Shown here: positions 3,429-16,639 of the stretch, piece by piece | Layout: each line of letters starts with the position of its first letter | How positions within the stretch are numbered: the first letter of the stretch is position 1 | Notes under the pieces: model-generated | Told to the model about the DNA's origin: nothing | Seen by the model: the letters and a program-made list of their open reading frames with translations, nothing else | Databases searched by the model: none | Assembly: GCF_000717715.1 (NCBI RefSeq) | Contig: NZ_JOAI01000079.1 | Span: 1-16,721 of the forward strand | Length of the DNA: 16,721 nt | Source of the DNA: Streptomyces sp. NRRL B-24484 | Lineage (GTDB): Bacteria; Actinomycetota; Actinomycetes; Streptomycetales; Streptomycetaceae | Reading direction: 5' to 3' | Made by a program: the position numbers and the translations under genes

Positions 3429-4052
3429 TCAGCGCAGCCAGGGGTGGTCGCGCACGACCGGGAGGGCGCCCCAGCGGCGGCCCAGCCCCCAGCTGTTGCC
3501 GGAGGCGGTGGCGGCCAACACGATCAGCAGCAGGGCGTAGACGAGGTGGTAGTCGGCGACGGGGTTGGTGGATCCGCTGGCGGCGCCGTTCGCCAGGTGG
3601 CGGGCGGGCGGCCACTCGGCGGTCCACATCATCGCCAGCAGCAGGGTCCCGCTCGCCGCGGCGATCCGCAGGCCGATCCCGCCGATGAGAGCGAGGCCGA
3701 TGCCGAGCAGGCCGAGCATGAACAGCCAGTCAGACCAGGCCTGTCCAGCCCACTGATGGAAGGCGGACTGCAGCGGGCCGGCCGAGACGTGGCTGAGGAA
3801 GCCCTTGGTGGGCGAGCCTCCCCTGACCCAGGCGGCGGCGCTCTTGGTGGCGTAGCCCAGGCCGAAGACCTTGTCGAGGAAGGCCCACAGGAACACGAAA
3901 CCGAGGGCAACCCGGGTGGCGGCCAGGGCGGTGGCCGTGGCGGTGGTCGCCGCGGTGGTGGCGGCACGGTCGGCCGGCTGCGCGGTGCGGCGGTGGAGCC
4001 TGGCCGTGAGGCGGCGGGGCATCCGGGGGGTGTGAGCGTGGTGGACGGCCAT
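3429..4052 (-). CDS. DoxX-like integral membrane protein
   Basis: This 207-residue protein starts at the ATG at 4052, chosen because AGAGGAG stands about 6 nt upstream. An Arg/His-rich N-terminal tail (MAVHHAHTPRMPRRLT) precedes hydrophobic segments: around ALAATRVALGFVFLWAFLDK, then a long stretch DWLFMLGLLGIGLALIGG...LLLAMMW that can make two helices, and YHLVYALLLIVLAATAS. The four-helix layout, with WAFLDKVFGLGY in the first helix region, fits the DoxX/TQO-small-subunit-like family, whose members are often tied to quinone or redox-stress functions in the membrane. The precise substrate is unknown. It lies 119 bp downstream of ohyA on the same strand with no obvious terminator between them, and is followed by a strong terminator, so the two may be co-transcribed. 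Confidence 0.8.
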   Translation of the reverse strand: MAVHHAHTPRMPRRLTARLHRRTAQPADRAATTAATTATATALAATRVALGFVFLWAFLDKVFGLGYATKSAAAWVRGGSPTKGFLSHVSAGPLQSAFHQWAGQAWSDWLFMLGLLGIGLALIGGIGLRIAAASGTLLLAMMWTAEWPPARHLANGAASGSTNPVADYHLVYALLLIVLAATASGNSWGLGRRWGALPVVRDHPWLR

Positions 4053-4171
4053 GATGGGCTCCTCTGCTGGTTCTACTGCCGGACTGGCGTTAATGATTTG
4101 CGGGTGCGTGCTGCGGTGGGCGCGAGGCCGCGGGCGGCCGCTGGGAGGGCCGGGGCCAGGCCCTCCTGCCG

Positions 4172-5740
4172 TCACTTACGGTGCATGGTGTGCAGGGCCC
4201 GGGCCAGGACGTGCGGGTCGTGGTGGCCCTTGTGGACGGCCGGCGGCTGTCGGTCAAGGCCGAGGAGCTGCGCCACCGCGGCCCAGGCGGTGCGCACGGA
4301 GTACTCGACGGTGAAGACGACGTCGTCGGGAACCTCGGCGAACTGGCCGATGAAGGCGAGGTTGGTGGAGCCCTTCGGTACGACCTGCGGCCGGTCGCCG
4401 TGGCTGCGGACCAGGAACTGGCTGGTGATGTAGGGCATCAGGCAGGGGATGACGGTGGATGCCTCGGCGACGCGCTCTGCGGTGGTGGCATCCACGGCCA
4501 GGTGGTGCAGAACTTCCTGGAGGATCTCCTCCCCGCTGCACTCCCGCATGGGCTTCTGGACGTACGTCCCGGGCTTGTCGGGGAAGAGGCCGTAGCCCCA
4601 CCAGACGGACACGTCCTTGGGCTGCTGCTGGTAGACCGGCTGGCGGTTGACCACGACGGTGAGCAGCCAGGGGGAGTCGGTCAGGGTGAGCAGGCCGCCG
4701 CGGCCGGTAGCACGACCGGTGAACTTCTCCATCCAGTCCAGGAAGGCCGGGTCCTTGGCGGTGACGGTGAAGGACTCCCAGGTGGAGTCGGCGACACTGC
4801 GGTCGAACACTTCCGGGCGGCCGAAGTCCTCGCGGCCGCGGGCGATGCGGTGCCAGAGCAGGAAGGAGGAGGGACTGCGTGAGGTGCTCGGGCCTTCCGG
4901 CGGGGCGGTGTGCGAGCCGAGGGTGGAGTCGGCGGTCATCGAGCCGTTGGTGACGAACACCAGGTCGTCCGGGGCGACCGGAAGGTCGGCGTGGGCACCA
5001 GCGAAGTGGATGCGCTCGACGCTCGTGCCCGGCTCCGCCCGGAAGGACAGGTCGGTCACCCGACGGCCGGTGTGGATCCGCACGCCGCGCTCCAGCAGCC
5101 AGCCGGTCAGCGGGCGGACGATCGAGTCGTACTGGTTGTACCGGGTGCGGTAGATCCCGGACATCGTCTCGAACTCGGGGAACAGATGCACGAAGCGCCT
5201 GAGGTAGCGGCGGAACTCGATCGCGCTGTGCCAGGGCTCGAAGGCGAAGGTGGTGCACCACATGTACCAGAAGTCGGTGGTGAAGAAGTCCTCGCGGAAG
5301 CAGTCGGTGATCCGCTTGCCGTCCAGCATCCGTTCCGGTGTGGCCAGGCACTTGACCAGCTGAAGGCGGTGCTGCTCGGAGAAGCCCATGGCATGGCCGT
5401 CGCGGATCTCCCCGCCCGCGCCCACCAGCCGGGTGGCGTCGTCCCACGGTGACTCCTGGTGGGAGTCGTAGACGTCCTGGGTGGCGGAAGTCGACGGGTC
5501 GTCCAACGACGGGATGCCGGACAGCAGGTCGTAGGTGCAGCGGAACTGGGCCTCGAACATCCGCCCGCCGCGCATCGTGTAGCCCGCGTCCGGCGTGCCG
5601 CCCGCGTCCAGGCTGCCGCCGACCTCCTCCTGCTCCTCGAAGAGGTAGATGTCGCTGCCGGCGAAGCCGCCGTCGCGGATCAGGAACGCCGCGGCGGACA
5701 GGGCGGCTATGCCACTGCCGACCAGATATGCCTGTGCCAT
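4172..5740 (-). CDS. ohyA: Oleate hydratase (MCRA family, FAD-dependent)
   Basis: This 522-residue protein belongs to the myosin-cross-reactive-antigen family, which adds water to the cis-9 double bond of oleate and related fatty acids to give 10-hydroxy fatty acids. FAD plays a structural role. The start ATG at 5740 has GAGGAG 7-8 nt upstream. The N-terminal Rossmann motif LVGSGIAALSAAAF is at about residues 6-19, followed by EEQEEVGGSLDAGG (35-48). RGGRMFE (57-63) supplies Glu63, the likely equivalent of the catalytic glutamate. WCTTFAFEPWHSAIEFRRYL (161-180) is strongly conserved in the family, and Tyr179 is a candidate for the catalytic tyrosine. The length is at the short end of the family's usual range of about 520-650. 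Its role is probably detoxification or modification of unsaturated fatty acids at the membrane. A palindrome 44 bp upstream suggests repressor control. Confidence 0.92.
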   Translation of the reverse strand: MAQAYLVGSGIAALSAAAFLIRDGGFAGSDIYLFEEQEEVGGSLDAGGTPDAGYTMRGGRMFEAQFRCTYDLLSGIPSLDDPSTSATQDVYDSHQESPWDDATRLVGAGGEIRDGHAMGFSEQHRLQLVKCLATPERMLDGKRITDCFREDFFTTDFWYMWCTTFAFEPWHSAIEFRRYLRRFVHLFPEFETMSGIYRTRYNQYDSIVRPLTGWLLERGVRIHTGRRVTDLSFRAEPGTSVERIHFAGAHADLPVAPDDLVFVTNGSMTADSTLGSHTAPPEGPSTSRSPSSFLLWHRIARGREDFGRPEVFDRSVADSTWESFTVTAKDPAFLDWMEKFTGRATGRGGLLTLTDSPWLLTVVVNRQPVYQQQPKDVSVWWGYGLFPDKPGTYVQKPMRECSGEEILQEVLHHLAVDATTAERVAEASTVIPCLMPYITSQFLVRSHGDRPQVVPKGSTNLAFIGQFAEVPDDVVFTVEYSVRTAWAAVAQLLGLDRQPPAVHKGHHDPHVLARALHTMHRK

Positions 5741-5783
5741 CGGAATACTCCTCAACTCTGCTGGGGAAAAATGCTGTTCGTGC

Positions 5784-5799
5784 CTGACCGGCCGGTCAG
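5784..5799. promoter_or_regulatory. 16-bp perfect palindrome, candidate repressor operator for ohyA
   Basis: CTGACCGGCCGGTCAG is its own reverse complement. It sits 44-59 bp upstream of the ohyA start codon, between the end of the IS110 remnant and the ribosome binding site. The size and symmetry fit a TetR-type operator, and oleate hydratase genes in actinobacteria are often controlled by such repressors (from memory). No regulator gene is present next to it; the upstream neighbour has been replaced by IS debris. Confidence 0.55.
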
Positions 5800-5962
5800 A
5801 AAGTGGCGCTGCGCTGATCGGGTTCGCCGTTCGAGCTGTTGGTGCCAGCCTGCTCTGGGCCAGCCGCTTGGGGCTTTGGGCCATTGGTCACTGGTGGGGG
5901 AACAACGGTCCCGGCGGCACGGCCTTGGGGTGCTCGGCGCGGATTGCGGGTGTCCTCGGCGG

Positions 5963-6900: not shown

Positions 6901-7869
6901 TCAGGCCTTCTTGTAGCGGGCGTGGTTGATGTGCCAGATGTAGGAACAGGCGATGGATTCCAAGGCTCCGGCATGTTCCGTTAGCGGGGCCGAGTCGCTG
7001 GTCGCGAGTGCGCCGATCCCGTGCCGGGCAGCCGCGGCGTGCTCTTCCCCCAGAAGGGAAGCTGCTGCGTATGCGGTGGGGATGTCGCAGCTCTGCTCTC
7101 TCGTGATCAACGATACGAGGTTCAGCGAGTTCGGGACGCCCTTGGCGGATTCCCTCGCGTAGGAGCCGAGGTCGTTCAGCACGCCGGCGAGGTCGGCCAC
7201 GGCCGACTCCGCTTGCCGCACTGCCTGGGAGTTTCGCGCCTCTTCCGGCAGCTCGTACCGCAGGACGACTTCGGCGACGGCGATGAGGGTCCGCACGAGC
7301 ACGGTGTGGGGGCGCATCGCGAGGTAGTCGTGCAACCTGACGTGATCGGGTTCGGCCAGGTGGTGCGCTTCCCAGAGGATGCCGAAGAGGACGTCCCTGA
7401 GACAGCAGCTGACCCGCAGGTACTGGGCGGCCGTGGCCCGGGTCCGCAGCCTCACGAGGAGGTCTTGGAGTGCTTCGTCGAAGGGGTCGGCGTCACCGGG
7501 AGGCTCGCCGTCGGCCAGGACGTGGAGGCAACCCTGGATTCGGCGCACCAGTTGGGCCGGGCTGCCTGCCGCCGTCGCCTCGCCGTAGGTGTCGTCGAAC
7601 GCGGTGAGCCACAAGAAAAGGTCCGCGCACAGGAAGAGGCCGTCCGGCTCGGCGGTGGGAAAGGTCCGGGCCACCCCGTGCGCCACGATGTCGCAGAGGG
7701 TGCGCCGTGCGTCGGGTGGACCAAGGAGCGGGAACCGGTGGAGCCATTGCCCCACGTGCGCCTGGATGTGGTCCGCGTGCGGGCTGCTCGGGAAGGGGCC
7801 GGGGAAGGTGGGGGAGAGGTCGGGCATGGGCAGCACGGTGACGCCTGCCGACCGGTCGGTGGTGGTCAT
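6901..7869 (-). CDS. Class I terpene synthase (diterpene synthase, labdane-related type)
   Basis: This 322-residue protein is a single alpha-domain terpene synthase. The metal-binding Asp motif is DDTYGE at 92-97, the NSE motif is NDLGSYARE (Asn232, Ser236, Glu240), and the C-terminal Arg-Tyr pair is R319-Y320. All three are intact, so it should ionise a prenyl diphosphate with Mg2+. With a class II cyclase in the same operon, its likely substrate is a bicyclic copalyl-type diphosphate, from which it makes a diterpene hydrocarbon or alcohol. The ATG at 7869 overlaps the P450 stop as ATGA and has GGGAGG 4 nt upstream, implying translational coupling. A farnesyl-using sesquiterpene role cannot be excluded by motifs alone, but the neighbours argue against it. 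Confidence 0.88.
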   Translation of the reverse strand: MTTTDRSAGVTVLPMPDLSPTFPGPFPSSPHADHIQAHVGQWLHRFPLLGPPDARRTLCDIVAHGVARTFPTAEPDGLFLCADLFLWLTAFDDTYGEATAAGSPAQLVRRIQGCLHVLADGEPPGDADPFDEALQDLLVRLRTRATAAQYLRVSCCLRDVLFGILWEAHHLAEPDHVRLHDYLAMRPHTVLVRTLIAVAEVVLRYELPEEARNSQAVRQAESAVADLAGVLNDLGSYARESAKGVPNSLNLVSLITREQSCDIPTAYAAASLLGEEHAAAARHGIGALATSDSAPLTEHAGALESIACSYIWHINHARYKKA

Positions 7870-9230
7870 GCTGCCTCCCGTGCCGCGGCGTGTCCTCGTG
7901 CCTCGGCGATCATGTGGAGGGAGGACGGGTGGACGGTGATGGCGGGTACGGGCCGGACGGTGGCGCCGGGTGCGTGCCGTAGGGTCCAGCGGGAGGCGAT
8001 GAGGGCGGTCAGGACCGCTGTCTCCGTCCAGGTGAAGCCGTCGCCGATGCACATGCGATTTCCGGCGCCGAACGGGATGTACGCGCCCCTGCGGGGTTGC
8101 GGTCGTTCGGGAAGCCAGCGGTCCGGGTCGAACCGCAGCGGGTCGGGGTAGAGCTCCGGGTCTCGGTGGAGCGCGTACGGGCTCCACACCAGGTCGGCCC
8201 CGGCGGGAAGGTGCGCGCTGCCGAGCCGCACCGGCACATTGGCTCGGCGGGTCACGATCCAGGCGGGGTTGTGCAGGCGCAGGGTCTCGGTGACGAGCCT
8301 GCGGGTGAGAACCAGCTGGGGAAGGTGCTCCGCGGTGAGCCGACCGCCGGCCAGTACGGTGTCCACCTCCTGGTGCAGGTGTTCCTCGATACCGGGGTTG
8401 CGGCCCAGTTCGTGGAAGAGCCACGCCATGGTGACCGCGGCGGTCTCGGTGCCCGCGGCCAGCAGGCCGGTGATCTCGGACAGGATCTCCTCCTCGTCCA
8501 ACGGCCGGCCGTCCTCGTCGCGGGCGTCGAGGAGCAGGGAGACGAGGTCATCGGGGCGTTCGGGGTCCGCCCGGTGAGCGGCGACGATGTCGCTGACCGT
8601 CCCGCGCAGCAGCGTGTTCGCGGCCCGGACCTTGCGCTTGCCGGGGAGGGGCAGCTTCTCCCAGCCGGAAACCGGCGTGACGGCGCGCCGGATGGCGGCC
8701 TGGAAGAGGGTGTCGACGCCGTTCATGACGGCTTGCGCCGGACCGCGGTCGAGGTCGGAGGAGAGCAGCGCCGACAGGACGACGCCTTGGGTCATGAGCT
8801 GCACCTCGTTCTGCACGTCGAGTCGTGCCCCGTGTTCCCAGGTCCGGAGTGCGGTCTCCGCGGTGGTGATCATCCGGTCGACGTAGGAGTTGATGCGCTC
8901 GCTGTGGAAGGCGGGCTGCACCAGGCGGCGGCGTTTCAGGTGCCGCGGTCCGCCCTCGGTGACCGGCAACGGCGATCCGCCGAACAGGCGGAGCTTCTCG
9001 AAGAGCCGGCCCTTGCCGAAGTTTGCGTGCTGGGCGGTGAGTGTCTCCCAGATGAGTTCGGGTGAGTTGACGACGAACACCGGCTTCGGGCCGAACCCGA
9101 TCTGCACCACGTCACCGTGGCGGCGAAGTCGTTGCATGAACTCCAGCCGGTCCCGGAGCATCGGCAGCAGGTGGCCGACGACGGGCAGGCGCCCCGGTGC
9201 ATGCGGAATGGGCGTTGCGTCGGCGGTCAC
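7866..9230 (-). CDS. Cytochrome P450, diterpene-tailoring
   Basis: This 454-residue P450 has all canonical motifs: I-helix AGTET at 259-263, K-helix ETLR at 315-318, RFDPDRWLPERP before the heme loop, and FGAGNRMCIG with the heme-ligating cysteine at 394. Start is the GTG at 9230 (VTADATPIPHAPGRLPVVGH), which overlaps the class II cyclase stop as GTGA and has GGAG 8 nt upstream; the longer open frame to 9584 runs antisense-like through the cyclase. The AGTET I-helix and the PERF-like RW segment resemble the longer-chain terpene or fatty-acid hydroxylating bacterial P450s. It sits between the two cyclases, so oxidation of the diterpene scaffold (hydroxylation or epoxidation) is the natural role. 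Redox partners are not encoded in the window. Confidence 0.9.
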   Translation of the reverse strand: MTADATPIPHAPGRLPVVGHLLPMLRDRLEFMQRLRRHGDVVQIGFGPKPVFVVNSPELIWETLTAQHANFGKGRLFEKLRLFGGSPLPVTEGGPRHLKRRRLVQPAFHSERINSYVDRMITTAETALRTWEHGARLDVQNEVQLMTQGVVLSALLSSDLDRGPAQAVMNGVDTLFQAAIRRAVTPVSGWEKLPLPGKRKVRAANTLLRGTVSDIVAAHRADPERPDDLVSLLLDARDEDGRPLDEEEILSEITGLLAAGTETAAVTMAWLFHELGRNPGIEEHLHQEVDTVLAGGRLTAEHLPQLVLTRRLVTETLRLHNPAWIVTRRANVPVRLGSAHLPAGADLVWSPYALHRDPELYPDPLRFDPDRWLPERPQPRRGAYIPFGAGNRMCIGDGFTWTETAVLTALIASRWTLRHAPGATVRPVPAITVHPSSLHMIAEARGHAAAREAA

Positions 9231-10855
9231 GGGCGGTGCTCCGTTTCGTGGCGGGTGTGCAGCAGGTGGCGGGCGGCGAGGACCTCGGCCTGGATCATCG
9301 CCTCCGGTGCGTAGAGGGTCTTGTCGTGCCAGCGGGCGGGGTGCCGGTGGCCGGATGTACGGGCCGTCTCGTCCAGGAAGGCCTCGGCGCGGTCCAGCGT
9401 GCGCCCGTCGGCGATCCCCGGCGTGCGGAGCAGGATCTTCACCGCGTACGCGGTCTCCTCGGCGGTGCCGCCCCAGATGCCCCAGGACCCGTCGGGCTGC
9501 TGGGTGGCCAGCACCCATTCGGCGGCGGCCCGGACGGCCTGGCGCGCCCGGGGACCGGGTATCGCGGACAGTGCGGTGACGCACCGCTCAGTGGCGTAGT
9601 ACGGGGATGCGTGCCACTTGTCGGTCCAGTGGCCCTGCGGCAGTTGATGCTCCGTCATCCAGTCGGCCACCCGCCGCATCACCGGCAGGTGCGTCTGGGC
9701 CTCCTCGGGGCGGTGGCGGAGGTGGGCCTGCAGGGCCTGGAGGGCGTGCGCGTTGGCGCTCAGGGACTTGGTGTCCTCGCCGACGTAGCAGTCGTAGTGG
9801 CGGCCGTTGTCGAAGACGGCGAGCGGGGCGGGGTCGCGGGGCCGGTCGACCAGGGCTGCGACGAGTACGGCCATGGCGGTGTCGTCGGCGTCCACCATCA
9901 GCCCTGGTGCGCCGCGGACGCCCTCGGGGTCGTAGAGGTGGTCGGCCCACTTTCGCAGGGTGAGCAGGCCGGAGGACGCCAGGCCGGAACGCGCCAGCGC
10001 AGCCGCGACCCAGAGCCGCTCGAACACCGTGATCGGTGCTGCCTCCGGGAGGAGGCCGCCATAGCGGTGCGCCACGGCGGCGAGCTCGTTGGCGGCACGC
10101 CGCTGCAACCCGGAGAGGCCTGCGGCGGCGAGCCAGGCCGCGGTGGCGGCCGGGGAACTGCCGACCAGCCCGTCCGCCTCGGGCCGCAGCACGTCCGGGA
10201 GGTGCCCGGCGACACCTTCGAAGGTGTGGTGCAGCTTGAACGGGACCCCGCCGGCAGCCAGGCACTTGCGGGCGACCGCTTCGGGCGCCGCGGCGTGGTA
10301 GCCGCGCGGGACGGCGGGACGCGTGCCGCGGTGCCAGGGCCCGAGGTGCGTGAGATCCGCGACACCGGGCCGGTCGAGGCGCTCGTTGACGGCGGCGACC
10401 AGGCCCGGGACGAGAATCTCCGCGGCCGCGGTGTCCGGCCACAGCCCGGCCGACGGCAGACGACCGAGCGCGGCGAGCCCCCTGGCCGCCACCGCGGCGA
10501 GCCGGCCCCCCGCACCGCTGGCCAGTGGCTCCCGCTGCAGCACCGCAAGTACGGCCTCGACAGCACTCAGCGTCGGCAGGAGCCGGTAGGGCGCGGGCCC
10601 ATCGCCCCAGCTGCCGTCGGCGGCCTGCTCACGGAGCAGGTATTCGACCCGGGCCTGTTCGCCGGGCAGCCACGGCGCCGCTGACAGCACACGGGCCGTC
10701 TCGTACAGGGACGGGCGGACATCGCCCCAGGGGTCGGCGTCGACCGCACTGATCAGCCTCGCCGCTGCATCGACGCAGGCGTCGCTCGCCGATCGGTGCT
10801 CGACGGGCGCCGTCGCCAGGGATGTCCCGCTCCCGCTGTGCTGGTGCTCGTTCAT
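9227..10855 (-). CDS. Class II diterpene cyclase (copalyl-diphosphate-synthase type)
   Basis: This 542-residue protein has the beta-gamma fold signs of class II cyclases. The general-acid motif DxDD is DADD at 322-325 (MVDADDTAM). QW-like repeats appear at about 77-84 (QAADGSWG) and near 450 (QQPDGSWGIWGG), and HDKTLYAPEAM lies near the C-terminus. No class I DDxxD motif is seen, so it should protonate and cyclise geranylgeranyl diphosphate while keeping the diphosphate, giving a bicyclic CPP of unknown stereochemistry or a hydroxylated labdanyl diphosphate. The length of about 520-550 matches bacterial class II enzymes, which lack the plant alpha domain. Its ATG at 10855 overlaps the prenyltransferase stop as ATGA, with GAGG 5 nt upstream, and its own stop overlaps the P450 start. 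Confidence 0.92.
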   Translation of the reverse strand: MNEHQHSGSGTSLATAPVEHRSASDACVDAAARLISAVDADPWGDVRPSLYETARVLSAAPWLPGEQARVEYLLREQAADGSWGDGPAPYRLLPTLSAVEAVLAVLQREPLASGAGGRLAAVAARGLAALGRLPSAGLWPDTAAAEILVPGLVAAVNERLDRPGVADLTHLGPWHRGTRPAVPRGYHAAAPEAVARKCLAAGGVPFKLHHTFEGVAGHLPDVLRPEADGLVGSSPAATAAWLAAAGLSGLQRRAANELAAVAHRYGGLLPEAAPITVFERLWVAAALARSGLASSGLLTLRKWADHLYDPEGVRGAPGLMVDADDTAMAVLVAALVDRPRDPAPLAVFDNGRHYDCYVGEDTKSLSANAHALQALQAHLRHRPEEAQTHLPVMRRVADWMTEHQLPQGHWTDKWHASPYYATERCVTALSAIPGPRARQAVRAAAEWVLATQQPDGSWGIWGGTAEETAYAVKILLRTPGIADGRTLDRAEAFLDETARTSGHRHPARWHDKTLYAPEAMIQAEVLAARHLLHTRHETEHRP

Positions 10856-11970
10856 GCCTGCCTCGTAGTGGCGGATCCGGCGATGTCCCGCAGCGCCGCG
10901 ACAGCAGCGGCCGGGAAGGGGGCGTGGTCGAGGGATGCCAGGGCTTCGTCCCGCCGGATCCGGATCATCTCCTCCACGGCCTGCCGGGCTCCGGTGCGCT
11001 CGAGGATGCTCCGGACCACGTCTGCATCCCGCTCGGTGAGACTGGGTCTGCCGAACCGTGCGCGCAGCGACCGCAGCTCGCTCCGGGACGCCCGCTGGAC
11101 GGCGAGAGCCATGAGAACCGTGGCCTTGCCCGCCCGCACGTCGTCCAGCACCGGCTTGCCCGTTTCCCGGGGATCACCAAAAACCCCGAGGAGATCGTCC
11201 CGGAGCTGGAAGGCGTCACCGAGCGGCAGCGCGAACCCGCTGAGAGCTGCTTCGACCCCCGCGGTTGCGCCGGCCAGCGCCGCGCCCATGTGCAGAGGCC
11301 GCTCGACGGTGTACTTGGCCGTCTTGTATCGGATCACCCGCAGGGCGGTCTCGACATCGCCGGACAGCCGCCCGGTGGTCTGCAGGTCGAGGAACTGGCC
11401 GTAGACCACTTCGCTGCGCATCTCGTCCAGGAGCGGCAGGAGCCGTTCGGAGCCCTGGACTGTCAACCCCGCTCCGTGCAGGAGTTCGTCGGACCAGATC
11501 AGTGCCAGGTCCCCGAGGAGCACGGCGGCGCCTACGCCGTGCTCCTCGGCCCGGGAGACCGGGCCGCCGCCCGCGGTGTAGGCAGCGGCCAGTGCCCGGT
11601 GGGCCGAGGGCCGGCCGCGGCGGGCGTCGCTGGCATCCATCACGTCGTCGTGGATGAGGGCGAACGCCTGAAAGAGTTCGAGGCCCGCCGCCGCGCGGAC
11701 AGCCGGCGAGTGGTCGACCTCGCCGCCACCGGTGTACCAGCCGCACACACACAGCAGGGGGCGAAGGCGCTTTCCGCCAGTCAGGAATGTGCGCAGCTGG
11801 GCTATAAGGAACGGCAGTTCAGGGCCGGGCGCGGACTGCTCCTTGGCGTCCAGGAACGTGGCCAGCGCCGTATCGACCTCCCGCCGCACGGCCTGGAGGT
11901 CCAGTGCGGCGGGAGGGGGCACGACGTCGAGTGCGAGCGCTGCGCGTCTCTTGTGGTCAAGAACAGCCAA
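10852..11970 (-). CDS. Polyprenyl diphosphate synthase, probably geranylgeranyl diphosphate synthase
   Basis: With the TTG start at 11970 the protein has 372 residues. The first Asp-rich motif is DDVMD at 108-112 followed by ARRGRPSAH. GQFLDL and YKTAKYTVERP follow, and the second Asp-rich region is LRDDLLGVFGD (D258-D259), with Gly in place of the third Asp, as is usual for actinobacterial GGPP synthases. Phe at the fifth position before DDVMD could influence chain length, so C15 cannot be ruled out from motifs; the class II cyclase downstream makes C20 by far the most likely. I chose TTG because AAAGGAA lies 6 nt upstream; an in-frame ATG at 12012 has no good ribosome site and abuts an inverted repeat. 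This is the first gene of the diterpene block and feeds all later steps. Confidence 0.9.
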   Translation of the reverse strand: MAVLDHKRRAALALDVVPPPAALDLQAVRREVDTALATFLDAKEQSAPGPELPFLIAQLRTFLTGGKRLRPLLCVCGWYTGGGEVDHSPAVRAAAGLELFQAFALIHDDVMDASDARRGRPSAHRALAAAYTAGGGPVSRAEEHGVGAAVLLGDLALIWSDELLHGAGLTVQGSERLLPLLDEMRSEVVYGQFLDLQTTGRLSGDVETALRVIRYKTAKYTVERPLHMGAALAGATAGVEAALSGFALPLGDAFQLRDDLLGVFGDPRETGKPVLDDVRAGKATVLMALAVQRASRSELRSLRARFGRPSLTERDADVVRSILERTGARQAVEEMIRIRRDEALASLDHAPFPAAAVAALRDIAGSATTRQA

Positions 11971-11976
11971 TGCATG

Positions 11977-11983
11977 TTCCTTT
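11977..11983 (-). promoter_or_regulatory. Ribosome binding site deciding the prenyltransferase start
   Basis: AAAGGAA on the minus strand stands 6 nt upstream of the TTG at 11970. An overlapping ATG at 11975 is out of frame and gives only a shadow frame. The farther in-frame ATG at 12012 has only CTGGGG directly against it. Confidence 0.5.
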
Positions 11984-12014
11984 GGCGAGCAGGTGTGGTC
12001 ACGAACGCACATCC

Positions 12015-12040
12015 CCAGGCGTTCCGACCGTCACGCCTGG
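12015..12040. promoter_or_regulatory. Inverted repeat in front of the diterpene operon, candidate operator
   Basis: CCAGGCGT at 12015-12022 and ACGCCTGG at 12033-12040 are exact reverse complements with a 10-nt spacer. The centre is about 57 bp upstream of the proposed TTG start of the prenyltransferase, a typical place for an operator or a leader hairpin. I could not assign a convincing -35/-10 pair around it. Confidence 0.5.
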
Positions 12041-12071
12041 TGCCGATGTGGCGGAAAACACTCCGTCAGTA

Positions 12072-12094
12072 CGCTTCGACCCGTGGGCGAAGCG
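12072..12094 (-). terminator. Weak hairpin between the P450 and the diterpene genes
   Basis: CGCTTCG at 12072-12078 pairs with CGAAGCG at 12088-12094 around a 9-nt loop, 38 bp after the stop of the conservon-linked P450 (12133). On the minus strand TTTT comes only about 13 nt after the stem, so it may be a leaky terminator or attenuator, not a full stop. A 10-bp palindrome GCGTGCACGC lies next to it at 12110-12119. Confidence 0.3.
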
Positions 12095-12132
12095 CCGAGG
12101 CCGGGCAGTGCGTGCACGCGCTGTCGACGTCG

Positions 12133-13407
12133 CTAGCCCGGCAGGCTGACCGCGACCGCTGCGGCCGGTTTGGGCGACTGTCGCTGGGACGGGCTCTCGT
12201 GGCGTCGCGGGTGAAGCGGAGTGAACCGGGCGGGCAGTGCAGTCAGGCTCCGGTAGATGGGACCGCCCCGGTAGGCCAGTTCCGCTGAGGACACCGCAAG
12301 TTTGATGTCGGGCAGGTAAGAGGTGAGCCGTTCGATCGCCGCGGTGGCGACAAGGACGGCGGTGGAACGCGCCGGGCAGGCGTGCGGGCCTGCGGCGAAG
12401 GCCAGGTGGGCCTTGTTGCCGGAACGGTGGCCCTCGTTCGGCGGGTTGCTGTGTGGGCAGGAGTTGGCGGCCGCGTAGGAGACCATCACCGGTGAGCCAG
12501 CCGGAATGACCGTGCCGTAGAACTCGACCTCCTGCCGAGGGAAGTGAAGGCTGTAGTTCGCCAGCGGGGAATCGTTCCACAGCGCCTCGTCGATCGCGTG
12601 CTGGATCGGCAGACTCCCGGTGGTGAGGCTACCGAAGTAGCGGTCGTCCGAGAGCATGCGCGCGAGCGTGCTGGCGATCAGGTTGGTCAGCGGCTCGTTG
12701 CCCGCACCGAGAACGATGATGACCTGCTGGAGGACGTCTTCCGGACTCAGCCCATTCGGGTGGTCAATGAACCACGAGGTCAGGTCATGTCCGCGCTGCT
12801 GGGCCTTGGCGGCGTACAGGCTGGTGAGGTACTCGTTCAGCGACTGCGCACCCGCTGCCATCTGAGCGGGATCGGAGCTCACCATCCCGCTCAGCGCCTG
12901 CATGAGGCGGGGAGCGTACTCGTCGGGCATGCCGAACAGCGCGTTGAAAACCATCAGCGGGAGCTGCTGCGCGTACTGGGCGACCAGGTCGGCCTCACCG
13001 TCCATCGCGAACTGCTGGAGCAGCGTGTCGGCGTACCGGAAGGTCAGGTTGCGCACATCGTGGGGGTCGAGAAGGCGGAAGCTGTCCGTGATGACGCTGC
13101 GCAGGTGGGCGTGCTGGGCGCCGTCGGCGAAGAACAGGCTGGGCCGCCACTGCACGTGCGGCATGAGAGGGCTGTCCGCCGGCACCTGGTCCATCCACGG
13201 GCGGGTGTCCTTGGACCAGGTGTCCGTGTCGTGGAGGAGGTCGAGTGCGGCGCGGTAGTCGGTGACCAGGTGGACGACGACGCCGGGGGAGATCTCCGCA
13301 AGGCCGACCGGCCCCTGCAGGCGCAGCAGGTCGTAGCTGCGCCGGGGGTCTGCGTCGTGTTCCGGCCCGTAGATGCGCACCGGGGAGGCGGGAGGAGTGG
13401 CGGTCAC
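12133..13407 (-). CDS. cvnE: Conservon-linked cytochrome P450 (CYP157-like) with degenerate K-helix
   Basis: This 424-residue P450 has its heme loop intact: FAAGPHACPAR with the cysteine at 344. The normally invariant K-helix ExxR is replaced by DEALW at 273-277, and the I-helix reads AGNEPLTN (from residue 235), with Pro where the usual Thr sits. CYP157 enzymes of Streptomyces, encoded in conservons, are known for a comparable EQSLW motif; here even the first Glu is Asp. Start is the GTG at 13407, overlapping the cvnD stop as GTGA, with GGAGA 9 nt upstream. The open frame to 13701 is an extension through cvnD. Its place as fifth gene of the operon is that of cvnE in conservons such as cvn9 of S. 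coelicolor. Its substrate is unknown, and it may act within signalling or on the diterpene. Confidence 0.85.
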   Translation of the reverse strand: MTATPPASPVRIYGPEHDADPRRSYDLLRLQGPVGLAEISPGVVVHLVTDYRAALDLLHDTDTWSKDTRPWMDQVPADSPLMPHVQWRPSLFFADGAQHAHLRSVITDSFRLLDPHDVRNLTFRYADTLLQQFAMDGEADLVAQYAQQLPLMVFNALFGMPDEYAPRLMQALSGMVSSDPAQMAAGAQSLNEYLTSLYAAKAQQRGHDLTSWFIDHPNGLSPEDVLQQVIIVLGAGNEPLTNLIASTLARMLSDDRYFGSLTTGSLPIQHAIDEALWNDSPLANYSLHFPRQEVEFYGTVIPAGSPVMVSYAAANSCPHSNPPNEGHRSGNKAHLAFAAGPHACPARSTAVLVATAAIERLTSYLPDIKLAVSSAELAYRGGPIYRSLTALPARFTPLHPRRHESPSQRQSPKPAAAVAVSLPG

Positions 13408-14024
13408 GACGATTCGTCTCCGGCTCGGGATATCAGGTGGGCGGTCAGGGCGATGAGCGCGTCCAGGGTGGAATTCTTGTCCCGGGCGTCGCAGGTCACC
13501 AGCGGGGTCCGTTCGTCCAGGTCGAGCTTGGAGCGCAGGGTTTCGAGGGTGTAGTCGGGCGAGGTCGGGAACGTGTTCACGGCGACCGCGTAGTCCAGGC
13601 CGCGTTCCTCGATGAGGTCCATGACCTCGAACGACTGGTCCAGGCGGCGGGTGTCGGCCAGGACAAGGGCGCCGATGGCGCCGTCGGCGATGTCCTCCCA
13701 CAGGGGCAGGAAGCGGCGCTGCCCAGGGGTGCCGTACAGGTACAGGACCACCTTGGCCTGCGGCACGGTCAGCCGGCCGAAGTCGATGGCGACCGTAGTG
13801 GTCGTCTTGCCTCGCAGGCCGTCCAGGGTGAGGTCGTCCGCCGATGCGGCAGCGTCGGTCATCACCTCGTCCGTGTGCAGCGTCGGGATCTCGGACAGAG
13901 TCCTGATCGCGGTGGTCTTCCCGATGCCGAGAGGGCCCGCCACGAGGATCTTCAGCCTCTGGTGGTCCTCCTCCGGCAGATAGACAGGACGCGGGCTAGT
14001 GCTGCCTGAGCGCACGGAGTCCAC
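13404..14024 (-). CDS. cvnD: CvnD: conservon small GTP/ATP-binding protein
   Basis: This 206-residue protein of the conservon GTPase family has a P-loop GPLGIGKT at 30-37, DFGRLTV at 81-87, a G3-like YGTPGQRRF at 97-105, and VNTF at 149-152 where small GTPases have NKxD. This pattern is typical for CvnD and resembles MglA/Ras-like switches. It is thought to cycle nucleotides in a membrane-associated complex with CvnA-C. The GTG start at 14024 has AGAGG 6 nt upstream and lies within the end of cvnC (29-nt overlap), which is usual for this gene pair. The stop overlaps the P450 start. Confidence 0.92.
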   Translation of the reverse strand: MDSVRSGSTSPRPVYLPEEDHQRLKILVAGPLGIGKTTAIRTLSEIPTLHTDEVMTDAAASADDLTLDGLRGKTTTTVAIDFGRLTVPQAKVVLYLYGTPGQRRFLPLWEDIADGAIGALVLADTRRLDQSFEVMDLIEERGLDYAVAVNTFPTSPDYTLETLRSKLDLDERTPLVTCDARDKNSTLDALIALTAHLISRAGDESS

Positions 14025-14379
14025 TCAGCACCTCTTCCAGGAGTTCTTTCGACGGACGCTCGGCGCCCGCGTCGGGGAGCAAGGCAGTGGGGGCCGGCAC
14101 GCGAACCTGCAGGTGCCCGCCGTCCAGGAGTTGAGAGATCAGGACCTTGCACACACTGGTCTGCAAACGGAGATACGCGGCCGTTTCACTGACGGTCAGA
14201 GCGCCTCCCGTCAACAGCGAGATGATCCGCTGATGCACCGGAGTGTGATGAGGGGCGGGCGGAAGACCCGTGGCGACCACGGCCATGAGCGAATGCAGAG
14301 TGTTGCGAGTCGGGGTCCCGATGCCCCGAGTAGCCAGATAGCTGGGGATCATCCGCCGACCCTGCGACGAGCGGCTCAT
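13996..14379 (-). CDS. cvnC: CvnC: DUF742 protein of the conservon
   Basis: This 127-residue protein begins MSRSSQGRRMIPSYLATRG, the Arg-rich, Pro-Tyr start common to DUF742. A winged-helix-like core follows, with HQRIISLLTGGALTVSETAA and YLRLQTSVCKVLISQLLDGG, and then the C-terminal helix LLEEVLSGLRAL. DUF742 proteins occur in conservons between the roadblock and GTPase genes and are thought to act as adaptors in the complex; DNA binding is not established. The ATG at 14379 overlaps the cvnB stop as ATGA, with GGGAGG 4 nt upstream. Longer open frames upstream are cvnB in another frame. Confidence 0.9.
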   Translation of the reverse strand: MSRSSQGRRMIPSYLATRGIGTPTRNTLHSLMAVVATGLPPAPHHTPVHQRIISLLTGGALTVSETAAYLRLQTSVCKVLISQLLDGGHLQVRVPAPTALLPDAGAERPSKELLEEVLSGLRALRQH

Positions 14380-14813
14380 GACGCCTCCCGTGTGCGGGCC
14401 GGGACGGACATGAGTTGCTCGCCGAGCTTCTTGGCCTGCCGGGCCATGATGTGCGCGACCGTACCCATGGGCATGTCGAGGCCTCCTGCCACGGCGATGA
14501 AGGTGTTGGTGCGGGCACCGGCAGGCATGATCATGTACGTGCCGTGGGTGTTCTGCACGGTGATGGTCGTGATGGGAGTCCCGTCCGAGGCGTCCAGCGC
14601 CGCGTTGGCCGCGGCTCGGGCCGCGCCGTGAAGGGCGGCCGTCATGGCGGAGATGCCTTCCGCGGCCTCCCGCAGGAGCCCTTCCGTCGCGCCGATGACC
14701 ATGCCGTCGCTGGACAGGATCAGGGCGTGCTTGACCTCGTTGCTCACTTCGGTGATGGGATTCAGGACCCACGACGGGTCCTCGATTGCAGGGCGCGAAG
14801 CGGAAAGGGTCAC
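14376..14813 (-). CDS. cvnB: CvnB: roadblock/LC7-domain protein of the conservon
   Basis: This 145-residue protein contains one roadblock/LC7 domain: EVSNEVKHALILSSDGMVIG at about 22-41, an alpha-helical stretch EGISAMTAALHGAARAA, then beta-strands ITTITVQNTHGTYMIMPAG and TFIAVAGG, ending MGTVAHIMARQAKKLGEQL. Roadblock proteins regulate small GTPases (as MglB does MglA), so it is the natural partner of CvnD. The GTG at 14813 overlaps the cvnA stop as GTGA and has AAGGA 6 nt upstream. Confidence 0.92.
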   Translation of the reverse strand: MTLSASRPAIEDPSWVLNPITEVSNEVKHALILSSDGMVIGATEGLLREAAEGISAMTAALHGAARAAANAALDASDGTPITTITVQNTHGTYMIMPAGARTNTFIAVAGGLDMPMGTVAHIMARQAKKLGEQLMSVPARTREAS

Positions 14814-16144
14814 TGATCTTCCTTCGAGTCGTTGGGGGCTTGACCTGCGGCGAGTCCCGCCTGGAACTGGCTCCAGGTGTCACGGGCCGTTTCCGGGTTC
14901 AGCTCTCGGGGCGCGACATCGGGGGCATCGCTGCGTGCGGGCTCCGTGCGGGCGCGCCGATGGCGCTGGGGAAGGTCGCTGCCGTCGTCCCGGGTGCTGT
15001 TCGAAGCCGCCGGAGTGGGCCACTGCGGTGCAGGAGGGGGTGCGGCAGGCAGGGGAGCCATCGCCGAGATCGGTTCCTTCTCTTCGTCGATCGTCGTCAA
15101 CAGGTGCGGGGGGATCGTGAGGACCGCGCGGACCCCGTTGTAGGGGGAAACCTGGTCGATCGAGACCTGGAAGCCGTGGTCGGCGACGAGCCGGCCGATG
15201 GCTGCGAGCCCCAGAGCGGGCGGATCGCCGAGCTCGGTCAGCAGCGTGTCCTGCTGCTCCACGACCGAGAGCAGGCGGACACCGCGACGGACGGCCTCCG
15301 CGCTCATGCCGGTGCCCGCGTCGTCGATGATGATGCAGACGCTGCCATTGCCGGTCTGGATCAGGCCGGCCTCCACCGCGAGGTCGTCCCGGGAGTGCTC
15401 CAGGGCATTGGCCATGAGCTCGGTGAGAGCCACCGCGATGGGCTCCGCCGCGCGACCGACGACCGCAAGGTTCGAATCGAGCAGCCGCGAACTGATCTTG
15501 ATGCGCTCGTAGCCGTGGAGCCGGGACGAGGCGCCGCTGACGATTTCGACGACGTAGGTGTCCGGACGCACGTGTCCGGGCCACGCGCCGCAGACGATCG
15601 CGGCCTTCTGCACCAGACGGATCGCCTGCTCGTTGAGGTGGTCGACCTTGAACAGACTGTCGAGCAGCCGCGGGTCGTCAAAGTCGCTCTGCAGGCCCTC
15701 GACCTGCGTCTGCAGCCGGTACGACAGCGCCTGGATGTCCTGGCACGCGCCACGCAGCGCCGCACGGGCGGAGGCATCGATCCGTCGGCGCTCCTTGGCT
15801 ACCGTGTCCGAGTAGTGGCCGAGCACGGCCTCGTAGAGGGAGGCGTACGCGGTCCCGGCCAGGGCCTCGTGCTTCAGACCCGGAACCGGGTGATGCGGAC
15901 TGACCAGATGCAGCGCCAGGCCAGGGAGACGGTTGGCGACCAGATGCTGAAGCTCGTCGCCGAACTGCTGGAGCTGTTCCTGGAGCGCCTGCTCTCGCTT
16001 TTGCGAAGCTTTCAGTGCCTCGGACTGCACGGCGCTTCGCGCGACCAGGGCGCGACGCGAGCGTGCCAGCAGTGCCGTGGCTACAGCGCCAGCTGCGGTC
16101 GTGGCGCCAAGCACCACTGCGGCAGTCTCGGGTATCGAGGTCAA
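14810..16144 (-). CDS. cvnA: CvnA: membrane sensor with histidine-kinase-like ATPase domain
   Basis: With the TTG start at 16144 the protein has 444 residues. One N-terminal membrane segment (about 7-27, ETAAVVLGATTAAGAVATAL) is followed by basic residues and a likely coiled coil (about 36-68). A dimerisation-type helix with LFKVDHLNEQAIRLV (H169) comes next, and then a HATPase domain: N-box ALTELMANALEHS (N246), DDAGTGM at 274-280 and LGLAAIGRLVADHG at 311-324. The tail after 355 is Pro/Ala/Arg-rich and disordered. Such proteins are the sensor kinase-like members of conservons, with no cognate response regulator nearby. TTG was chosen because AGGA lies 8 nt upstream and it puts the membrane helix at the N-terminus. 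An ATG at 16297 is in frame but lacks a ribosome site and would add a non-conserved-looking leader. First gene of the operon. Confidence 0.9.
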   Translation of the reverse strand: MTSIPETAAVVLGATTAAGAVATALLARSRRALVARSAVQSEALKASQKREQALQEQLQQFGDELQHLVANRLPGLALHLVSPHHPVPGLKHEALAGTAYASLYEAVLGHYSDTVAKERRRIDASARAALRGACQDIQALSYRLQTQVEGLQSDFDDPRLLDSLFKVDHLNEQAIRLVQKAAIVCGAWPGHVRPDTYVVEIVSGASSRLHGYERIKISSRLLDSNLAVVGRAAEPIAVALTELMANALEHSRDDLAVEAGLIQTGNGSVCIIIDDAGTGMSAEAVRRGVRLLSVVEQQDTLLTELGDPPALGLAAIGRLVADHGFQVSIDQVSPYNGVRAVLTIPPHLLTTIDEEKEPISAMAPLPAAPPPAPQWPTPAASNSTRDDGSDLPQRHRRARTEPARSDAPDVAPRELNPETARDTWSQFQAGLAAGQAPNDSKEDQ

Positions 16145-16639
16145 CGGTCGGGTCCTAGGGCTCGAGCCGGCTCCGGAGGCCAGACATGGCGGAGCCGCCC
16201 GTTCATGGTGAACGAGCTCCGACCCGTGGAGTCCCGGCAGATTGCGAACGGAAATCTGATCGATGGAGCAGCGCCGGGCATGGCCGGGCGTTGTCATTAT
16301 GTGGCATGCGCGCGACAAGTGTGTCACTTCGACCAATAGGCGCAGGCCTCGGTGTCAGCTCATCGCTGAGCTGTCGCTCCACAACACGATGGCGCTCCCC
16401 ATGGGACGTCCGATGCCCCGGCGTGCGATGACCTGGCAGTCGTGAGCATCATCCTGAACTCCGCGGGTCTTCCATCGGGGCCACGGGGCGACAACCGGTT
16501 TGACTCGCTCCGCATCTGACTGGTCATTAGATCATATTGACGACGAGGCGCACCATGCATGTCCATCCCGCGAGGACCTCCGCGATTTGGCACTTGCCCA
16601 TGCGTGCTTTCCAGCAGTAACCCGTCATAACTGATCATT
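16145..16639. other. Non-coding stretch upstream of the conservon
   Basis: About 495 bp without a gene I can support. It must hold the conservon promoter; a CATAAT on the minus strand near 16300 is the best -10 candidate, but no good -35 matches it. A small hairpin CAGCTCA/TGAGCTG lies at 16356-16373. Minus-strand open frames of 50-90 codons around 16360-16638 show no start with a ribosome site and no recognisable motif; they could be decayed coding sequence. The AT-richer part at 16500-16640 is the flank of the IS5-type element that begins at the right edge. Confidence 0.5.

What the first reader, a model, noticed from the sequence alone, without database searches (positions are those of the whole stretch)
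6901..16144. Conservon fused in layout to a diterpene cluster: possible GTPase-type signalling control of a terpenoid pathway
Nine consecutive minus-strand genes form two overlapped blocks: cvnA-B-C-D-P450, then the diterpene genes, separated by only about 160 bp. Conservons are membrane-linked sensor/roadblock/GTPase units whose outputs are poorly known. One placed directly before a complete biosynthetic unit suggests that it senses something linked to the product or controls its synthesis, or that its P450 modifies the diterpene.
Basis: inference. Interest (0 to 1): 0.75.

Follow-up and report, generated by a model that had tools for sequence, protein, structure and literature searches.

The report
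G-protein signalling cassette tied to labdane genes
A bacterial small-GTPase signalling operon sits directly before the genes for a plant-like diterpene, and the two blocks were found together, in the same order, in every related locus examined, which makes it very likely that the signalling system serves that pathway.

Summary
Nine minus-strand genes at 6901-16144 form cvnA-B-C-D-CYP157-like P450, a 120-162 bp gap, then GGPP synthase, class II cyclase, P450, class I cyclase. The source is Kitasatospora rather than Streptomyces. The second block is a labdane cluster of the published lrdABDC type.

Across 26 loci the order never differs; one is cut by its contig end. DNA homology to five sister loci stops within 24 bp of the last gene. 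A second conservon-terpene unit, with selinadiene synthase, occurs in 20 of 30 fetched loci.

Best reading: a dedicated control cassette in which a sensorless CvnA and a P450-fold CvnE without EXXR take the input, and the GTPase CvnD sets diterpene output. Dedication is strongly supported; signal, sign and output step are inferred. CvnE as tailoring enzyme is less likely. Conservons beside biosynthetic genes have precedents.

The parts
14810..16144 (-). cvnA: histidine-kinase-like protein, one hydrophobic N-terminal segment and no extracellular sensor region seen (by eye); C-terminal LPxR motif
   Evidence: HATPase_c E 9.9e-5, below cut-off; LPxR in 26 of 26 loci; His169 of DHLNEQ in 25 of 26, Gln in L106
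14376..14813 (-). cvnB: roadblock/LC7 protein
   Evidence: PF03259 36.2 bits, cut-off 23; lowest score of 12 such places in the genome
13996..14379 (-). cvnC: DUF742 protein
   Evidence: PF05331 69.5 bits
13404..14024 (-). cvnD: small GTPase with GxxxxGKT and GTPGQ motifs
   Evidence: PF03029 72 bits; both motifs in 25 of the 25 loci whose protein exceeds 200 aa (L106 left out)
12133..13407 (-). cvnE: CYP157-like P450, heme Cys kept, EXXR replaced by EALW, I-helix GAGNEP
   Evidence: one clade of 26 loci
11971..12132 (-). gap between the two blocks; no strong terminator found in this clade
10852..11970 (-). GGPP synthase (lrdA position); alternative start 12012
   Evidence: PF00348 162.9 bits; the 12012 frame is open
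9227..10855 (-). class II diterpene cyclase with DADD motif (lrdB position)
   Evidence: best PDB match 5bp8 ent-copalyl diphosphate synthase, E 2.8e-96; DxDD in 26 of 26
7866..9230 (-). canonical P450, the likely diterpene oxidase (lrdD position)
   Evidence: PF00067 237.6 bits; I-helix, ExxR and Cys motifs in 25 of 25, L023 lacking the gene by contig end
6901..7869 (-). class I diterpene synthase (lrdC position), 48% identical to (E)-biformene synthase LrdC; Leu at the Phe189 position
   Evidence: PDB 6oh6 E 5.5e-89
16145..16577 (-). upstream region of cvnA conserved with sister loci: likely promoter region of the cassette
   Evidence: blastn homology to L009 runs to 16577 and to L010, L100, L101, L102 to 16537-16557

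Best explanation
A nine-gene cassette in which an actinobacterial G-protein system (conservon cvnABCDE) is dedicated to a labdane-type diterpene operon of the lrd kind. Shown: the two blocks occur together, in fixed order, in all loci examined. Inferred: CvnA has no outside sensor, so the input is taken inside the cell or in the membrane through CvnE, a P450-fold protein that has lost usual catalytic motifs and may bind the diterpene, an intermediate or a related lipid near CvnA's ATPase domain. CvnA then acts through CvnB/CvnC on the nucleotide state of the GTPase CvnD, and CvnD sets expression of the GGPS-cyclase-P450-cyclase operon, most likely through a DNA-binding protein encoded elsewhere. 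By analogy with Cvn8 and its neighbouring lan cluster, repression relieved by the signal is the more likely sign.
For: Dedication: 19 of 19 loci found with the cyclase carry the conservon; the same 14 of 394 genomes for cyclase, CvnE and LrdC-type synthase, complete cassettes seen in all 14; in 70 genomes of the genus the same 7; near-constant overlaps inside the conservon block; no flanking gene family common to four or more loci except one in five close relatives; DNA homology to five sisters ending at the block; one CvnE clade; distances of the two halves correlate at r 0.94. Mechanism: CvnE motif loss; published correlation that CvnE/CvnF go with CvnA proteins lacking sensory domains, with CvnE11 modelled against the CvnA11 ATPase domains (PMC13343842, abstract and passages); cvn8 deletions raise expression of the adjacent lan cluster (PMC8510531, passages). 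A histidine that may be the phospho-acceptor is kept in 25 of 26 loci, where the sister conservons have Phe in 19 of 20.
Against: No DNA-binding regulator lies in the cassette. In 16 of 26 loci, none in the window's clade, the 100 bases after cvnE fold strongly (z <= -2), so the blocks may be separate transcripts there. The lrdABDC block gave labdanes in heterologous Streptomyces hosts, with no conservon mentioned in the passages seen (PMC10301674), so the conservon seems not strictly required. CvnE positions that separate this clade from its sister are not enriched in my approximate substrate-recognition regions. Only 9 of 22 splits are shared by the two trees, some conflicts with high support. 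Loss of EXXR is general for CYP157. The locus nearest to LrdC, L106, has Gln at the CvnA histidine and a deviating CvnE I-helix.
Confidence: 0.5

Rival explanations
1. CvnE is a working enzyme of the pathway: the conservon P450 oxidises the diterpene, and cvnABCD is the neighbour that controls or localises it.
For: Heme Cys kept in 26 of 26; cvnE and the diterpene genes always occur together here; sequence relatives with structures include the hydroxylases PikC and vitamin D hydroxylase; for three heterologous hosts with the lrd cluster the review names only unoxidised (E)-biformene (PMC10301674, passages), which leaves room for a missing oxidase.
Against: No EXXR in 26 of 26, GAGNEP in place of the usual I-helix threonine motif in 24 of 26; 20 conservons without diterpene genes carry the same type of P450; a second P450 with all motifs is present; lrdABDC gave an oxidised labdane in the S. 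cyslabdanicus delta-cld host according to the same review.
Confidence: 0.18
2. The conservon acts on proteins, not on transcription: CvnD-GTP or CvnE binds GGPP synthase or the cyclases and assembles or switches a membrane-bound diterpene enzyme complex.
For: In mycobacteria the protein encoded right after the conservon (MfpA) binds the GTP form of its GTPase (passage in PMC4316618); there is no regulator gene in the cassette; adjacency did not vary.
Against: The lrd block is productive in heterologous hosts with no conservon mentioned (PMC10301674, passages), so such a complex is not obligatory; no interaction data.
Confidence: 0.15
3. Mere neighbours: the two operons travel together on a mobile segment without any functional link.
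For: Patchy distribution, 14 of 394 genomes; little in common between flanks; transposase-like reading frames at 203-1255 in the window (by eye); supported conflicts between the two trees.
Against: The order is kept at 55-65% cyclase identity with not one separation among 26 loci, hardly any flanking gene stays with the block, and a similar link exists with selinadiene synthase.
Confidence: 0.07

Closest known systems
Conservon upstream of indole prenyltransferase clusters (Ozaki et al. 2013, PMC3617294; passages read)
   Same: A conservon, some with an extra P450, is always upstream of the prenylating biosynthetic genes across actinomycetes; the authors suggested a signalling role
   Different: Other enzymes (IptA with tryptophanase or FMO) and another product class; here a complete diterpene pathway, with a CYP157-like CvnE in 26 of 26 loci
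Cvn8 and the lan lanthipeptide cluster of S. coelicolor (PMC8510531, PMC13343842; passages read)
   Same: CvnA without sensor domain plus an accessory protein, next to a biosynthetic cluster
   Different: GAF-type CvnF instead of P450-type CvnE; lanthipeptide cluster; control shown there by deletions, not here
lrdABDC labdane cluster of Streptomyces thermocarboxydus K155, with cyslabdan cld and raimonol rmn clusters (review PMC10301674, passages; LrdC structure 6oh6)
   Same: Genes for GGPS, class II cyclase, P450 and class I synthase (roles of A, B, D recalled; LrdC role); synthase 48% identical; of the sampled genomes the one nearest to LrdC (74%) has the conservon
   Different: The passages read do not mention a conservon and K155 itself was not available; the window's synthase has Leu at the position of LrdC Phe189, so its product may differ from (E)-biformene
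fkmR1-R4 conservon in the frankiamicin type II polyketide cluster (PMC4383371; passage read)
   Same: Conservon inside a biosynthetic operon
   Different: Polyketide, Frankia, no P450 accessory stated in the passage

Membership tests
Conservon / actinobacterial G protein system | Four core genes cvnA-B-C-D in order | tested here: met
   same order in 26 of 26 loci
Conservon / actinobacterial G protein system | CvnA histidine-kinase ATPase domain and C-terminal LPxR motif (PMC4316618 passage) | tested here: met
   HATPase_c E 9.9e-5 but below Pfam's cut-off; LPxR 26 of 26
Conservon / actinobacterial G protein system | CvnB roadblock, CvnC DUF742, CvnD small GTPase | tested here: met
   GTPase motifs in 25 of 25 counted
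Conservon / actinobacterial G protein system | CvnE or CvnF accessory goes with a CvnA that lacks a sensory domain (PMC13343842) | tested here: inconclusive
   no sensory region seen in the first 110 residues of 26 loci or in the window's full CvnA, by eye; no transmembrane predictor was available
Conservon / actinobacterial G protein system | GTPase cycle, membrane complex and regulatory output | not testable with these tools
   needs bench work
CYP157 (conservon P450) | Lack of EXXR, typically E-x-(x)-L-W (PMC3599690 passages) | tested here: met
   E or D, then x-L-W, in 26 of 26
CYP157 (conservon P450) | More than 40% identity to a named CYP157 member | not tested
   no named CYP157 sequence was compared; up to 55% to unnamed conservon P450s outside the clade
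lrd-type labdane diterpene cluster | GGPS, DxDD class II cyclase, P450 and class I synthase together | tested here: met
lrd-type labdane diterpene cluster | LrdC catalytic Phe189 and Tyr317 for (E)-biformene (PMC9814573 passages) | tested here: not met
   Tyr kept in 25 of 25; Phe189 is Leu in the window, L009, L010 and L109, Phe in the other 21 of 25. It is therefore filed as lrd-type by gene content, not as a biformene producer
lrd-type labdane diterpene cluster | Product (E)-biformene or an oxidised labdane | not testable with these tools
   needs expression and chemistry

The most novel reading that the evidence does not exclude
P450-type conservons are terpenoid receptors: CvnE is a P450 turned into a ligand-binding input subunit that reads the terpenoid made by the adjacent genes, and this G-protein feedback device has been attached at least twice independently to terpene pathways (labdane and selinadiene units).
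Probability: 0.2. Interest if true: 0.88.

Novelty: new member of a known kind. Interest (0 to 1): 0.6.

Why it matters
Inputs and outputs of conservons are poorly known. Here one is tied, without exception in the loci examined, to a pathway whose enzymes and product class are known, so both ends can be tested with one cluster: labdane as candidate ligand, lrd-type transcripts and labdane yield as readout. It may also offer a handle to switch on such clusters, and it points to a second terpene pathway with a similar layout.

Tried and rejected
Chance neighbourhood: rejected. A general excess of conservons near class I terpene synthases: in 13 genomes 2 pairs within 5 kb against 0.49 expected, 3 against 0.79 within 8 kb (one is the window), 7 against 1.48 within 15 kb (two of these share a conservon). 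Counted were 55 of 67 synthase matches (12 second domains of two-domain, probably geosmin-type, synthases dropped) and 99 of 101 DUF742 matches (two below cut-off dropped); expectation from uniform placement. Suggestive only.

A retuned ligand pocket in CvnE: 50 clade-separating positions, no excess in substrate-recognition regions whose limits I set by eye; negative. Terminator or promoter in the window's own gap: no promoter-like site; the one terminator-like site is on the other strand; folding z -1.15 and 0.08. Spread outside the family: the class I synthase matched 1 of 246 genomes drawn from the class, the window's own. Six genomes with more distant class II cyclases (31-43%): no match to cvnA, B, C or D in the fetched stretches, mostly about 9 kb each side and 6 kb on one side of L112; three of six show weak P450 matches of 24-26%.

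Print: no paper describing a conservon with a terpene cluster came up in 'conservon + terpene' (3 papers; passages opened in 2), 'roadblock + diterpene + Streptomyces', 'CYP157 + terpene', the six-term search (15 of 10,473 listed) and 'CYP157 + conservon'. Of 24 papers with conservon and Streptomyces I opened passages of 8. The search for the lrd original gave only citing papers. The library lacks most subscription papers.
Full report
What is there. The window is a complete 16,721 bp contig (C79) of a draft genome of 8.86 Mb. Its nearest relatives are Kitasatospora, not Streptomyces: the closest named locus, Kitasatospora sp. DSM 101779, is 92% identical in the class II cyclase, and 69 further genomes are listed as same genus. 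The nine genes of the finding are open, in the stated order and on the stated strand. Block one is cvnA, cvnB (roadblock), cvnC (DUF742), cvnD (small GTPase) and a P450. Block two is GGPP synthase, a class II diterpene cyclase with DADD, a canonical P450 and a class I synthase. In the window neighbours within each block overlap by 4 bases (29 for cvnC/cvnD).

Which pathway. The class I synthase matches one PDB sequence far above all others, the labdane-related synthase 6oh6 (E 5.5e-89; next best E 2.6e-24), which is LrdC, the (E)-biformene synthase (LrdC and its product from PMC10301674 passages; that 6oh6 is LrdC is recalled and fits the residues at 189 and 317). The class II cyclase is closest to an ent-copalyl diphosphate synthase (5bp8, E 2.8e-96). 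The lrdABDC cluster gives labdanes in heterologous hosts: (E)-biformene is named for three, an oxidised labdane for the S. cyslabdanicus delta-cld host. Two LrdC residues are reported as essential for biformene formation, Phe189 and Tyr317 (PMC9814573, passages). Tyr317 is kept in 25 of 25 loci. Phe189 is kept in 21 of 25 but is Leu in the window, L009, L010 and L109. The window's product may therefore differ from biformene.

The refutation test. A scan of genome contigs with the cyclase gave 19 loci at 55-92% identity, and 19 of 19 have the conservon in front, same order and strand; L023 ends with its contig after the cyclase. In 394 genomes of the window's family (Streptomycetaceae by its named relatives; an even draw from a larger group) the cyclase at 58% identity or more is in 14. 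CvnE at 61% or more is in the same 14, always 1,281-1,445 bp from the cyclase, the room of the GGPS gene. The next cyclase is at 43% and the next CvnE at 55%. A search with LrdC itself returned the same 14 of 394; the genome nearest to LrdC, G267 at 74%, has the whole cassette. Complete cassettes were seen in all 14. In 70 genomes of the genus both genes are in the same 7. Six genomes with more distant cyclases (31-43%) showed no cvnA-D match in the stretches fetched, only weak P450 matches of 24-26% in three. The next 20 of 27 listed CvnE places were fetched: 20 of 20 are conservons with two P450 genes and no match to the diterpene genes; cvnB gave no match in 3 of them. Joining both collections gives 26 loci that differ by contig: the window, L009-L027, L100, L101, L102, L104, L106 and L109.

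A unit with edges. In the 25 loci besides the window, cvnA and cvnB overlap by 4 bases in 24 and cvnD and cvnE in 25; the gap before GGPS is 38-177 bp, and spacing inside the second block runs from overlap to 92 bp (start codons chosen by script, wrong for GGPS in L018 and L019). No flanking reading frame family of 120 aa or more is shared by four or more loci except one in five close relatives; families in two or three loci were not listed, and the flanks held differ in length. DNA homology of the window to L009, L010, L100, L101 and L102 begins within 24 bp of the class I synthase stop and ends 393-433 bp before the cvnA start. This marks a cassette and, upstream of cvnA, its likely control region.

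One history or two. Trees of the joined conservon proteins and the joined biosynthetic proteins (25 taxa, L023 left out) have distances that correlate at 0.94, with 0 of 2000 permutations as high, but share only 9 of 22 splits, some conflicts well supported. Either parts were exchanged while adjacency was kept, or long branches (L106, L109) mislead. CvnE of the 26 loci forms one clade (support 0.954), sister to the 20 ordinary conservon P450s chosen as next-best matches.

A second unit. A class I synthase beside a conservon in G029 is a selina-4(15),7(11)-diene synthase (651.6 bits against a cut-off of 450; best PDB match 4okm). Of 35 matches in 34 of 394 genomes, 30 loci were fetched with 1,500 bp on each side. 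In 20 of 30 a CvnE lies upstream and a P450 downstream on the same strand (50% identity or more to those of G029); in 3 more cvnD lies upstream; in 7 neither was found. Their CvnEs lie in another part of the tree, mixed with CvnEs of conservons that have no such synthase directly beside them. The simplest reading is that the link between conservon and terpene genes arose at least twice; this is an inference.

The two P450s. In the cassette's CvnE the heme cysteine is kept in 26 of 26. The K-helix reads E or D, then x-L-W, without arginine in 26 of 26. The I-helix reads GAGNEP in 24 of 26, with L027 (GAGNET) and L106 as exceptions. Most of the ordinary conservon P450s compared look alike, and absence of EXXR is published for CYP157 (PMC3599690, passages). 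The second P450 has all three motifs in 25 of 25. So the diterpene oxidase is most likely the second one. Clade-separating CvnE positions are not concentrated in my rough substrate-recognition regions, so a retuned pocket is not shown.

CvnA. No CvnA of the 26 shows an extracellular sensor region in its first 110 residues; most show one N-terminal hydrophobic segment, judged by eye (in L013 and L014 the script's start lies downstream of it). A recent paper reports that CvnE and CvnF go with CvnA proteins lacking sensory domains and suggests that they act at the input (PMC13343842, abstract and passages). The histidine of the DHLNEQ stretch is kept in 25 of 26 loci here (Gln in L106), while the sister conservons have Phe in 19 of 20 and Gln in 1. 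Whether it is the phospho-acceptor was not tested.

The gap. In 15 of the 17 loci L012-L027 and L104, and in L011, the first 100 bases after cvnE fold with z of -2 or lower, through a GC hairpin. None of the six loci of the window's clade (window, L009, L010, L100-L102) nor L106 and L109 do. Before GGPS lies a short element with GAACCG and CGGTTC arms and a conserved tail; a pattern for its right arm and tail matches in 15 of 26 loci. It may be an operator or leader; unexplained. The two blocks are probably separate transcripts where the hairpin stands; in the window read-through is possible.

Mechanism. Shown: ordered coupling, without exception in the loci examined, of an intact G-protein system to an intact diterpene pathway. 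Inferred: input through CvnE and CvnA inside the cell, relay to CvnD, and control of the diterpene operon. Precedents are Cvn8 beside lan, where deletions raise expression (PMC8510531, passages), and the indole prenyltransferase clusters, where a conservon is always upstream (PMC3617294, passages). A direct action of CvnD on neighbouring proteins is possible, as for MfpB and MfpA (passage in PMC4316618). Against a strict requirement stands the heterologous production by lrdABDC.

Verdict. The finding is real and its functional link strongly supported; the control it proposes is untested. A conservon next to biosynthetic genes is a known kind. This pathway as its partner, the strictness of the coupling and the second terpene unit did not turn up in the papers searched.

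Noticed in passing
L147:7694-14851 and L151-L180: A second conservon-terpene unit: CvnE, selina-4(15),7(11)-diene synthase and P450 on one strand, 20 of 30 fetched loci.
   Followed up: partly
gap cvnE to GGPS in L012-L027, L104: GC hairpin after cvnE in most and a conserved GAACCG...CGGTTC element just before GGPS; only a weak trace (GTTCTTGACC) in the window near 11955-11964.
   Followed up: partly
6901-7869: Leu at the position of LrdC Phe189 in the window, L009, L010 and L109, which may change the diterpene product.
   Followed up: partly
CvnA residue 169 (14810-16144): DHLNEQ histidine kept in 25 of 26 diterpene-linked CvnAs but Phe in 19 of 20 sister conservons.
   Followed up: partly
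L106 and L109: The conservon tree pairs these two with support 100, while the biosynthetic tree puts L109 with the Kitasatospora loci: possible exchange of one half of the cassette, or long-branch attraction.
   Followed up: no
4172-5884 and 3429-4175: Oleate hydratase gene (658 bits, cut-off 567) overlapping by four bases a reading frame that looks like a DoxX-type membrane protein (by eye); neither was matched in the stretches of L009-L027.
   Followed up: no
203-1255 and about 1750-2910: A transposase-like reading frame and fragments of other transposase-like frames, judged by eye, on the side where homology to sister loci stops.
   Followed up: no
L148:124-4203: In another family (G397) a cvnB-C-D-E set lies tail to tail with a class I terpene synthase.
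   Followed up: no
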